Source of the DNA: Bacteroidales bacterium
Lineage (GTDB): Bacteria; Bacteroidota; Bacteroidia; Bacteroidales; Prolixibacteraceae
Direction: 5' to 3'
Assembly: GCA_031285325.1 (NCBI GenBank)
Contig: JAITWJ010000091.1
Location: forward strand, 1 to 50,285
DNA: 50,285 nt
Made by a program: the position numbers and the translations under genes. Shown here piece after piece: positions 15,146 through 50,285 of the stretch; within the stretch, counting starts at the first letter, position 1; every line of letters begins with the position of its first letter. The notes under the pieces were generated by a model. It did no database searches, was not told the DNA's origin, and saw only the letters and a list, made by a program, of their open reading frames with translations.

Positions 15146-15172
15146 TTCTTCGCTTTTCCTGAAATTAGTTTG

Positions 15173-15403
15173 TTCTTCTTACATGAATATCATAAATTCT
15201 ACATTGAATACTGTACATTCTTGATGGAATTACATATATTCTATGTGGATTTATGCATATTCTTCACGGAATACTGTATATTTTATATTGAATAATGCAT
15301 ATTCTTGATGGAATTACGTATATTCTATATGGATTACTGTATATTATTTATGGAATATGCAAAATTATACATGAAATAATGTATATTCTTTATGATTTTT
15401 CTT
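15173..15403. repeat. 21-bp tandem repeat array, about 11 units
   Basis: Eleven degenerate 21-bp units run without a gap, for example ATATTCTTGATGGAATTACG plus T at 15299-15319. The conserved core is ATTC, five variable bases, GGAAT, which is itself palindromic. The array is AT-rich and lies between the convergent adk and alkylation-repair genes. A 21-bp period is two turns of B-DNA, so the palindromic cores lie on one face of the helix. Confidence 0.85.
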
Positions 15404-15407
15404 GAAT

Positions 15408-15479
15408 TTACTGAATAAATTTAACCTTACATACCCCGTACAGTGTTTTCAGAATTCCGGAAATTAAAACAGTTTCTAA
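15408..15479. repeat. TTTACTGAATAA ... AAAACAGTTTCTAA module, copy 1
   Basis: It holds TTTACTGAATAAATT, TTACATACCCCGTACAGTG, CCGGAAATTAAAACAGTTTC and TAA in order. The same blocks recur at 29744-29850. Its right end overlaps the stop codon (15476-15478) of the minus-strand gene. Confidence 0.7.
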
Positions 15480-29595: not shown

Positions 29596-29743
29596 GTGTT
29601 TCCTCTAATCATTATTGTGTAAAAAATAATTTCACCCTGTATCTTTAAATTATTTCGATTATTGCAAATATTTTGGCACTCCATATTATTGTGTTAAACT
29701 TAAATATTTTGGGTTGGTATTGTTTGGTTACAAAATTATTTTG

Positions 29744-29850
29744 AGTTTACTGAATAAGTTTTTTGAGAATTTACATACCCCTTATAGTGGTTTCGGAAGT
29801 TACAGAAAGTATCATACTACGTTTTCCGGAATTCAAAACAGTTTATCAAT
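29744..29850. repeat. TTTACTGAATAA ... AAAACAGTTT module, copy 2
   Basis: GAGTTTACTGAATAAGTT, TTACATACCCCTTATAGTGG and CCGGAATTCAAAACAGTTTA appear in the same order as at 15408-15479, with about 30 extra bases between the last two blocks. It lies in the spacer between argH and thrS; the rest of 29519-29960 has no recognised feature. Confidence 0.7.
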
Positions 29851-36105: not shown

Positions 36106-36125
36106 TTTAGAAACTATTTTGAATT
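36106..36125 (-). repeat. Inverted 19-mer, left boundary of the recG-mtaB spacer block
   Basis: TTAGAAACTATTTTGAATT matches in 17 of 19 positions the reverse complement of the right-hand copy at 36821-36840. The pair encloses about 735 bp. Confidence 0.65.
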
Positions 36126-36420
36126 GATAAGTTTTTTTTGAACTCTTCCTTGAAATACTTCGCGGTGGTTTCTCAACTCTGCGAAAGCAATTTCGCCCTC
36201 GTTGGCGTAATTGCCCGTTTCGTAATTGCGAACTGCAAGCTTGCGAAGCAGGAAACAATCCATAGCAATTATATGACGAAATGCATGTCCGCCGTTTGGC
36301 CGTTACACGGGCTATGCAAGTCGCAAATCGTGCTTCACGGTGCGCCCAACGGTTGCCTTGAACATTCCCGCAGGCTAAATTTGGGTATATTTCGTCTGTT
36401 CCATGCCTGCAAAGGCAGTT
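36126..36420. other. Spacer without a gene; shared module and C/G-rich text
   Basis: No convincing gene lies here. GGCGTAATTGCCCGTTTCGT at 36204-36223 is the reverse complement of 15124-15143. The segment 36270-36400 has coding-like composition on both strands but no recognised domain and looks like a non-coding repeat of a type found between Bacteroidota genes. Confidence 0.5.
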
Positions 36421-36422
36421 TA

Positions 36423-36650
36423 TTGTACCGAACAGCGTCATTCGGTACAATATTTTTTTATTATTATACTGAATGGATCGATTTGATATAATATTTTTTC
36501 AGGATTATACCGAATGATGTGATTTGGTACAATATATTTTTATTATTATACCGAACGGCGCCATCCGGTATAAGCCCAAGCTGGGGCGGAGTCAAATCGC
36601 GCTATTTGGTGCCTGCCCGACTTGGGGCGGGAGCGAATGACGCCTTTTGC
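36423..36650. repeat. Array of six hairpins with an exact 41-bp period
   Basis: Unit 1 is a perfect palindrome TTGTACCGAA-CAGCGTCA-TTCGGTACAA (36423-36450). Similar inverted repeats follow with centres at 36477.5, 36518.5, 36559.5, 36600.5 and 36641.5, always 41.0 bp apart. Stems change in step: unit 4 pairs ATACCG with CGGTAT, unit 5 CAAAT with ATTTG. The first three linkers are AT-rich, the last two GC-rich (CCCAAGCTGGGGCGG and CCCGACTTGGGGCGGG). Confidence 0.85.
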
Positions 36651-36655
36651 CCGTG

Positions 36656-36752
36656 CCGTCATTGCAATGAACCGCGAGGAACAAAGCGGGAAGCAATACA
36701 GCGTTACCGTGTTGCTTTGGATTGCTTCGGGCGTTGCCCTCGCAACGACAGG
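36656..36752. repeat. Imperfect long inverted repeat with GCGAGG/ATTGCTTC arms
   Basis: The left part GTCATTGC ... GCGAGGAAC ... GGAAGCAATAC pairs with the right part GGATTGCTTCG ... CCCTCGCAACGAC. This is the form of a widespread class of bacterial intergenic palindromes. It directly follows the 41-bp array. Confidence 0.6.
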
Positions 36753-36768
36753 CATCCTCCCTCTTAAT

Positions 36769-36804
36769 ATTAACTGTCAACTGTCCATTGTCAATTATCA
36801 ATTG
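36769..36804. repeat. TGTCAA-type dispersed repeat
   Basis: AATATTAACTGTCAACTGTC followed by CATTGTCAATTATCAATTG belongs to the family seen at 5681 and 15091. Confidence 0.6.
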
Positions 36805-36820
36805 TTTTTCCCTGTTTCTT

Positions 36821-36840
36821 GAAATTCAAAACAGTTTCTC
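36821..36840 (+). repeat. 19-mer, right boundary of the recG-mtaB spacer block
   Basis: AAATTCAAAACAGTTTCTC, inverted relative to 36106-36125 and same sense as the ends of the modules at 15408-15479 and 29744-29850. Confidence 0.65.
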
Positions 36841-36890
36841 AGTGTTTTTTATTTAAGATTTGTTGAAATAAGTGGTGCATAAGCCAAAAA

Positions 36891-41252: not shown

Positions 41253-41342
41253 TGCCGTTCAGTATCAGGTCGCGGAACTCGGTGTAAAACTGGAAATGTT
41301 CGTCGTTGTGGAGGTTGTGCAGGTATTTTTTTTTATTTTCAT
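41242..41342 (-). pseudogene. N-terminal fragment of a DUF6261-like gene
   Basis: Read on the minus strand, the ATG at 41342-41340 starts MKIKKN, then an A-run (plus strand T-run at 41327-41335) puts the rest out of frame. The shifted frame reads YLHNLHNDEHFQFYTEFRDL and then ILNGINN before a stop. The NDEHFQFxTEF block is the N-terminal signature I know from DUF6261 proteins of Bacteroidota, which are about 200-250 residues. Only about 30 residues remain, cut off within a dispersed repeat. A 42-bp repeat array ends 46 bp upstream of the start. Confidence 0.6.
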
Positions 41343-41387
41343 GATGAATGGTATATAAATGTTAATAAACGGCAGGGTAAACAGGCG

Positions 41388-41579
41388 TCCGGAACTCCGG
41401 AAAGTATAACCGAGGGGTCGGCGAGGGTATCCGGAACTCCGGAAAGTATAATCGAGGGGTCGGCGAGGGTGTCCGGAACTCCGGAAAGTATAACCGAGGG
41501 CTCGGGCAGGGTGTCCGGAACTCCGGAAAGCATAACCGAGGGGTCAAACATAGTATCCGGAACTCCGGAAAGGCTCCCA
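41388..41579. repeat. 42-bp tandem repeat array, 4.5 units
   Basis: Units start at 41388, 41430, 41472, 41514 and 41556 (partial). Each begins TCCGGAACTCCGGAAAGTAT and continues with a second 21-bp half containing CCGAGGGGTCGGCGAGGGT. The array is GC-rich. A minus-strand frame across it reads a 14-residue repeat (LSGVPDTLADPSVI) because 42 divides by three; it is probably not a gene. Confidence 0.9.
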
Positions 41580-42221
41580 TAAGGGTGTGCGGTTATGCAG
41601 CCAGTTTTTGACAGTACCGGCCGGCGGCAGAAGGCCAGCAGTATAGACACAGATAAGGTGTTACAGTTCAGCATATATGGTTGTGTTTACGGCATTCAGC
41701 ATAAAAAGCGTTCATGCAATACTGCCAATACTGCAATAATAGCAAACTGTTTTCAATAAACCTGAACTGTGGGGAATAAATTCGGGGAAAAAGCGCTGAT
41801 TTTTTACCCCTGACGGGTGAAAGCTGGCGGGCGGGAAGGTACTGCAGTGGGCAATGCAGGTAGATTTTACTGTCTTCGCAGCCATTGCTGATGCTGAATA
41901 CATGTAATTGAAAATAATTCTTATTCAATATATTTTATTTTCTTAAAAATTATTCCAATGCCTTTTGTTTTTTGATATACTGTTTTTTTTGACTGCGGTG
42001 TGTAACAGATTAACAAAACAGTTTTTACAATGTAAAAATACAAATTAAGGTAATAATAACCGGTAATGTTAATACTACGCCTTTACTCTCTTAATTTGAA
42101 ATGCGGTGCAAAATGCTGTAAAGGCTAAAATTTACTGTAACATAAATAACTGTCATAACTTTTCAACTTTAACTTGTTAGTTATTGCACCGGCAAATAAA
42201 TCAAACCTCTATTATTTTAAT
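41580..42221. other. Spacer without a recognised gene
   Basis: From 41580 to about 41910 the sequence is GC-richer and has open minus-strand frames with no domain. From 41910 to 42221 it is AT-rich. No RNA or terminator was recognised. Confidence 0.45.
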
Positions 42222-50158: not shown

Positions 50159-50177
50159 TTTAGAAACCGTTTTGAAT
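50159..50177 (-). repeat. TTCAAAACGGTTTCTAA repeat, inverted copy
   Basis: TTTAGAAACCGTTTTGAAT is the same 19-mer type as 36106-36125. The remaining bases to the window end show no gene. Confidence 0.55.
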
Positions 50178-50285
50178 GCAGGGAAACAAACAAATTACAG
50201 TTCAGGCATAATTTTTCATTATTTTTCTTTGAAGTTTAAAATGGTTTTACATACATTTATAGGAAATTTAATTAAACAGGAATAA

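What the first reader, a model, noticed from the sequence alone, without database searches (positions are those of the whole stretch)
36106..36840. recG-mtaB spacer is bounded by inverted 19-mers, like a non-autonomous mobile unit
TTAGAAACTATTTTGAATT at the left and the complementary form at 36821-36840 match at 17 of 19 positions and enclose about 735 bp of repeats without a gene. This is the shape of a MITE-like or composite element. Single copies of the same 19-mer lie at 15461, 29831 and 50159, so it may also be a simple dispersed repeat that happens to flank here.
Basis: partly seen in the sequence, partly recalled or inferred. Interest (0 to 1): 0.55.

Follow-up and report, generated by a model that had tools for sequence, protein, structure and literature searches.

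The report
Mobile-looking cassette carrying palindromic repeat array
The gap between two ordinary genes is one of dozens of look-alike DNA cassettes scattered through this bacterium, each ending in the same inverted sequence and many carrying rows of hairpin-like 41- or 42-letter repeats, and the same kind of repeat row sits in front of one uncharacterised gene family (DUF6261) across the Bacteroidota, which suggests an undescribed repeat-and-protein system.

Summary
Window 36109-36839 is bounded by a 17-nt inverted motif, AGAAACTGTTTTGAATT. It belongs to a family of about 100 such ends in this 2.16 Mb Bacteroidota genome (102 hits; 4 for the reversed control). Neighbouring ends always face each other (20 of 20), lie between genes and have two subtypes, usually one of each per element. 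Thirty-six congeners lack the family. No target duplication, parental transposase or empty site was found, so insertion is inferred.

The main result lies inside. Ends have a tandem array of 41- or 42-bp units within 1 kb on the inner side in 52 of 101 cases and on the outer side in 0. In the sampled genome 50 arrays have these periods and one has any other period from 30 to 55. Units hold a palindrome whose inner bases change in a compensated way between arrays. The same array type lies upstream of 45 of 56 DUF6261 genes across Bacteroidota and downstream of none. One inverted-ended element here still holds the whole DUF6261 gene; others, one in this window, keep the array and only the first 25-42 codons. 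Best reading: MITE-like carriers of orphan DUF6261 arrays. DUF6261 binding to the palindromes is inferred, not shown.

The parts
36107..36125 (+). Left inverted end (B subtype: AGAAACTATTTTGAATTGATAAGTTTTTTTTGAACTC...)
36823..36841 (-). Right inverted end (A subtype: AGAAACTGTTTTGAATTTCAAGAAACAGGGAAAAACAATTGATAATTGAC...)
36109..36839 (.). Whole inverted-ended element, 731 bp, 58 bp after the recG ORF and 52 bp from the mtaB ORF
36413..36582 (.). Tandem array of about four 41-bp units, each with an imperfect palindrome (TTATACCGAA...TTCGGTACAA type)
36301..36420 (.). Conserved box: 22 copies in the sampled genome, 17 of them within 60 bp of a 41/42-bp array
15170..15412 (.). Second array in the window, 42-bp units, next to an inverted end at 15461-15479 (-)
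29731..29848 (.). Small element: degenerate B-type left end and an inverted end at 29830-29848 (-); left limit approximate
41354..41599 (-). Third array, 42-bp units (GGAGTTCCGGATACCCTGCCCGAGCCCTCGGTTATACTTTCC)
41253..41342 (-). DUF6261 gene remnant: start codon and about 30 codons directly behind the third array, then lost
50160..50285 (+). Inverted end plus the leader found in the DUF6261-bearing element of contig C6, cut by the contig end

Best explanation
The recG-mtaB spacer is a MITE-like, gene-less element of a lineage-specific family. Its ends are the 17-nt inverted motif AGAAACTGTTTTGAATT with two distinct subterminal subtypes. The typical content is a tandem array of 41- or 42-bp palindromic units. 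The array is the orphaned cis part of a two-part unit, array plus DUF6261 gene, that occurs through the Bacteroidota; most elements here are derivatives in which the gene was lost and the array and ends kept. Shown: the ends, their pairing and polarity, the array periods, compensated palindromes, the upstream association with DUF6261, one gene-bearing element and truncated-gene intermediates. Inferred: that the elements moved by a transposase acting in trans on the ends, and that DUF6261 (helical by appearance, with invariant arginines) binds its array as DNA, one dyad about every four helical turns, to control itself or the unit.
For: 102 motif hits against 4 in the reversed control. All 20 neighbouring end pairs face inward. 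Array inside within 1 kb of 52 of 101 ends, outside for 0. In 490 kb the lag scan gives 17 arrays at 41, 33 at 42, and only one (44) at any other lag 30-55. DUF6261 in 75 of 140 family genomes. In a complete congener all 7 DUF6261 genes sampled have an array upstream, with 9 arrays in 400 kb; a congener with a single DUF6261 copy has none in 400 kb. 45 of 56 loci across the phylum have an upstream 41/42 array, none downstream. With only the outer motif fixed, TTGC-N9-GCAA units have all three inner pairs complementary in 60 of 74, against 0 of 7 outside arrays. Covariation exceeds all 500 shuffles. DUF6261 element with both ends: C6:10534-12069. Truncated genes behind arrays: C107, C62, window. 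No strand preference in folding favours DNA over RNA.
Against: No target duplication, no empty site and no transposase with these ends were found, so movement is not shown. About half of the ends have no array within 1 kb; some of these are at contig ends or are minimal elements. Three of the four intact DUF6261 copies in this genome lack clear inverted ends of this type on both sides. Eleven of 56 DUF6261 loci had no array detected.
Confidence: 0.6

Rival explanations
1. An ordinary MITE family: a deletion derivative of an IS whose transposase recognises the AGAAAC ends; the arrays are passive passengers.
For: Short inverted ends, intergenic placement, about 100 dispersed copies, absent from congeners, like MITECca01 in Cardinium (PMC9769881).
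Against: No parental IS: the DDE transposases found have other flanks and no Y1 transposase was found. No target duplication. Internal content is modular and far more variable than in a typical MITE, and the 52 against 0 array polarity is not explained by chance passengers.
Confidence: 0.2
2. The array is an RNA: a type III toxin-antitoxin-like unit in which tandem RNA repeats upstream restrain a DUF6261 protein.
For: Architecture matches: tandem repeats of about 40 nt directly upstream of one protein gene.
Against: Sense and antisense fold equally well (15 against 22 loci, p=0.20); G-T over A-C mismatches only 39 to 26; no significant similarity to known defence proteins in PADLOC; many orphan arrays; simple palindromes rather than a pseudoknot.
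Confidence: 0.12
3. A REP/RAYT-like system in which a protein mobilises palindromes.
For: Palindromes with conserved outer bases and variable stems, dispersed between genes, with a cognate gene next to arrays.
Against: No Y1_Tnp gene in the genome; DUF6261 has no HUH or other transposase family match; arrays are head-to-tail with fixed 41/42 period, not alternating.
Confidence: 0.08

Closest known systems
MITEs, e.g. MITECca01 of Cardinium (PMC9769881)
   Same: Short, gene-less, inverted ends, mostly intergenic, high copy, specific to one lineage of Bacteroidota
   Different: Variable modular content with 41/42-bp arrays; no parental IS and no target duplication found; two different end subtypes
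REP palindromes and REP-associated tyrosine transposases (RAYT; PMC2817692)
   Same: Dispersed intergenic palindromes with conserved outer bases and variable stems, and a protein family whose genes lie next to them
   Different: Fixed-period head-to-tail arrays; partner is DUF6261, not a Y1 transposase
Type III toxin-antitoxin loci (ToxIN, CptIN; PMC8860590, PMC4627078)
   Same: Tandem repeats of similar length directly upstream of one protein gene
   Different: No strand bias for RNA folding, simple palindromes, many orphan arrays, no detected similarity of the protein
DUF6261 (Pfam PF19775)
   Same: The gene in the C6 element and the remnant in the window belong to this family
   Different: Family of unknown function; I found no description of its upstream array

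Membership tests
MITE | Terminal inverted repeats at sharp boundaries | tested here: met
   17-nt ends; similarity stops at the same place in about 100 ends
MITE | Multiple dispersed copies without a transposase gene | tested here: met
   large ORFs are absent from the 27 paired elements except the DUF6261 gene on C6
MITE | Target site duplication | tested here: not met
   No length or offset significant over 27 pairs
MITE | Parental autonomous element sharing the ends | tested here: inconclusive
   PF13751, PF01609 and PF01797 searched; none has these ends; other transposase families and missing sequence not searched
MITE | Empty site in relatives | tested here: inconclusive
   recG and mtaB not adjacent in 36 congeners; no empty site among own copies
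REP/RAYT | Y1 transposase in the genome | tested here: not met
   No PF01797 match
Type III toxin-antitoxin | Tandem repeats directly upstream of the toxin gene | tested here: met
   45 of 56 DUF6261 loci
Type III toxin-antitoxin | Repeats act as structured RNA | tested here: inconclusive
   No strand preference, small G-T excess
Type III toxin-antitoxin | Toxin is a ToxN-like endoribonuclease | tested here: inconclusive
   Only PF19775 matches in Pfam; no significant PADLOC, PHROGs or PDB match by sequence; fold not predicted
DUF6261 (PF19775) | Profile match above curated cut-off for the C6 protein | tested here: met
   119 bits against cut-off 27

The most novel reading that the evidence does not exclude
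A previously undescribed two-part genetic system of Bacteroidota: a DUF6261 protein and a cognate array of 41/42-bp palindromic units whose stem sequence is private to each array, kept uniform within it and changed in a compensated way between arrays. In this genome the arrays have become mobile, gene-less cassettes of their own.
Probability: 0.45. Interest if true: 0.82.

Novelty: new variant of a known kind. Interest (0 to 1): 0.64.

Why it matters
A strict physical constant (41 or 42 bp), a compensated palindrome and one protein family of unknown function occur together across a phylum, including gut and oral species. That makes the function of DUF6261 directly testable: the first experiment is whether the protein binds its own array. 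It also gives a natural set of many related but distinct protein-site pairs, useful for studying how recognition changes in step. The gene-less carriers show how such arrays can spread and fill intergenic DNA in a small genome.

Tried and rejected
Target duplications of 2-12 bp at offsets 0-2: nothing beyond chance (best z 2.45 in 99 tests). The 7-bp AGTGTTT seen on both sides of this element, offset by one base, is not repeated at other copies. Empty sites by joining the flanks of 27 elements: no hit that is not the element's own end. recG-mtaB junction in named relatives and in 36 congeners: genes not adjacent. Transposases PF13751, PF01609 and Y1: none with these ends. RNA reading: no strand bias. 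Rfam: nothing in the window. Viral contigs: 10 single exact 18-mer matches, judged as chance and not studied further; no DUF6261 found in viral contigs by five protein scans. Structure prediction of DUF6261 was not attempted because none of its sequences came from a source the tool permits. Literature: one unrelated paper names DUF6261; no paper found on 41/42-bp arrays.

Full report
OBSERVATION. The inverted pair is real: 36107-36125 (+) and 36823-36841 (-), 17 of 19 matching, with three weaker copies elsewhere in the window. Shuffles give 0.15 matches on average, none as many as five. The element without the two partly conserved outer bases is 36109-36839, 731 bp. It lies 58 bp after the recG ORF and 52 bp from the mtaB ORF (the radical SAM protein and RecG are confirmed by Pfam). 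No ORF inside has a Pfam family above its cut-off.

FAMILY. In the 2.16 Mb genome (149 contigs) AGAAACTNTTTTGAA with at most one mismatch occurs 102 times, against 4 for the pattern read backwards. I took about 490 kb around these hits and read 101 ends with at most two mismatches. They fall mainly into two subtypes: A continues TTTCAGGAAACAGGGAAAAACAATTGATAATTGAC, B continues TTTACCGGATAAGTTTTTTTTGAACCCTTCCATGAACTGCTTCGCG. Profile searches found 27 facing pairs, 162 to 1536 bp, median 419, usually one A and one B. Neighbouring ends within 1 kb always face inward, 20 of 20. Elements lie between genes in every gene orientation, including divergent ones, so they are not simply terminators. The 36 congeners and 103 other family members have no copies beyond single chance hits. 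The genome is also smaller than its congeners (2.16 Mb against 2.9-7.8 Mb), and the closest named relatives in the RecG search are Prolixibacteraceae and other Bacteroidales.

MOBILITY IS NOT SHOWN. No target duplication of 2-12 bp stands out over 27 pairs. recG and mtaB are not adjacent in any congener or in the named relatives, so this locus has no empty site. Joined flanks find none within the sampled genome. Transposases found have other flanks and Y1 transposases were not found. Not every transposase family was searched.

THE ARRAYS. Inside many elements is a tandem array. In the sampled 490 kb, a scan of self-similarity at lags 30-55 gives 17 arrays at lag 41, 33 at lag 42, one at 44 and none elsewhere. 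Ends have an array within 1 kb on the inner side in 52 of 101 cases and on the outer side in none; 41 of 54 arrays have a facing end within 1 kb. The window holds three arrays: 36413-36582 (41), 15170-15412 (42) and 41354-41599 (42). The 120-bp box at 36301-36420 occurs 22 times and is within 60 bp of an array in 17.

PALINDROMES. Two classes recur: TTGC-NNN(3 nt)N'N'N'-GCAA in 41-bp units and TTTC-NNN(4 nt)N'N'N'-GAAA in 42-bp units; in these the 3-nt or 4-nt loop accounts for the difference in period, leaving about 24 bp of spacer. Selecting units on the outer motif alone, 60 of 74 TTGC-N9-GCAA units (18 arrays) have all three inner pairs complementary, with nine different stems, against 0 of 7 such motifs outside arrays; for TTTC-N10-GAAA it is 27 of 61 perfect and 28 with two pairs, against 4 of 73 perfect outside. 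Counts on aligned hairpins exceed every shuffle and every slid control, though those rows were chosen for being palindromic. Not every array carries one of these two cores: the window array at 36413-36582 has the 41-bp period and imperfect palindromes but not the TTGC core.

DUF6261. The largest pair, C6:10534-12069, carries a 245-aa gene that matches Pfam DUF6261 at 119 bits (cut-off 27) between an array and the B end. The genome has four intact DUF6261 genes and several remnants. All four intact ones are directly preceded by a 41/42 array. DUF6261 occurs in 75 of 140 family genomes and in 12 of 393 genomes sampled over the phylum. In 56 loci, 45 have a 41/42-bp array in the upstream stretch, other periods total six, and downstream stretches have none at all; this includes Prevotella nigrescens and, more weakly, a human gut contig. 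In 400 kb of a complete congener all 7 DUF6261 genes have an array on the upstream side and only two other arrays exist; 400 kb of a congener with one DUF6261 gene has none. Remnants in which only the first 25-42 codons survive occur on C107, C62, C17 and in this window at 41342-41253 (-); on C107, C62 and in the window they lie right behind an array. I read these as steps from a gene-bearing unit to an orphan array.

MECHANISM. Folding of 41 gene-linked arrays shows no preference for the sense strand (15 against 22, p=0.20), and wobble mismatches are only mildly favoured (39 G-T, 26 A-C). With compensated palindromes at about four helical turns per unit I prefer a DNA dyad recognised by DUF6261, which has invariant arginines and looks all-helical. 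This step is inference. How the elements spread is also inference: a transposase acting on the ends in trans is the simplest idea, but it has not been found.

NOVELTY. As inverted-ended elements these are close to MITEs, with defining points unmet or open. The array plus DUF6261 unit does not pass the tested features of REP/RAYT and is unproven for type III toxin-antitoxin loci. I found no paper describing it in the open-access library searched, which does not cover subscription journals.

Noticed in passing
L315: A DUF6261 plus array unit in another family of the phylum is flanked by an exact 16-bp inverted repeat TTTTGAGACAGCCTCT; 14 of 41 loci have some 16-bp inverted pair around the unit against 2 with shuffled flanks.
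   Followed up: partly
window whole; G000: This genome is 2.16 Mb while congeners are 2.9-7.8 Mb, so it looks reduced; gene order around recG is changed.
   Followed up: no
window 50160-50285 and 21 other ends near contig termini: The assembly breaks at these elements: 22 of 101 ends lie within 500 bp of a contig terminus.
   Followed up: partly
L209 about 2401-2445 and L211 about 2417-2465: Two DUF6261 copies share a downstream stretch GTTAGCGTCAGTGTCCGGTAC...GGCGCTGGCGCTAAT that looks like a terminator or another repeat.
   Followed up: no
L324 (C44): An insertion sequence with a DDE_Tnp_1_6 transposase (488-aa open frame) and 15-bp inverted ends GGAGGTTACTGAAAA, unrelated to the AGAAAC ends.
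   Followed up: partly
window 36640-36760 and many elements: Other shared modules inside elements: GTCACTGCGAGCTTGCGAAGCAGTCC palindromes and CCCCCGCCCCCTAAAGGGG blocks, shuffled between elements.
   Followed up: no
L257: In Prevotella nigrescens a DUF6261 gene with a 41-bp array lies close to a GxxExxY gene between two very long ORFs.
   Followed up: no
L259 4984-5172; L273 17034-17198: Two arrays of period 42 in a congener without a DUF6261 gene or remnant nearby.
   Followed up: partly
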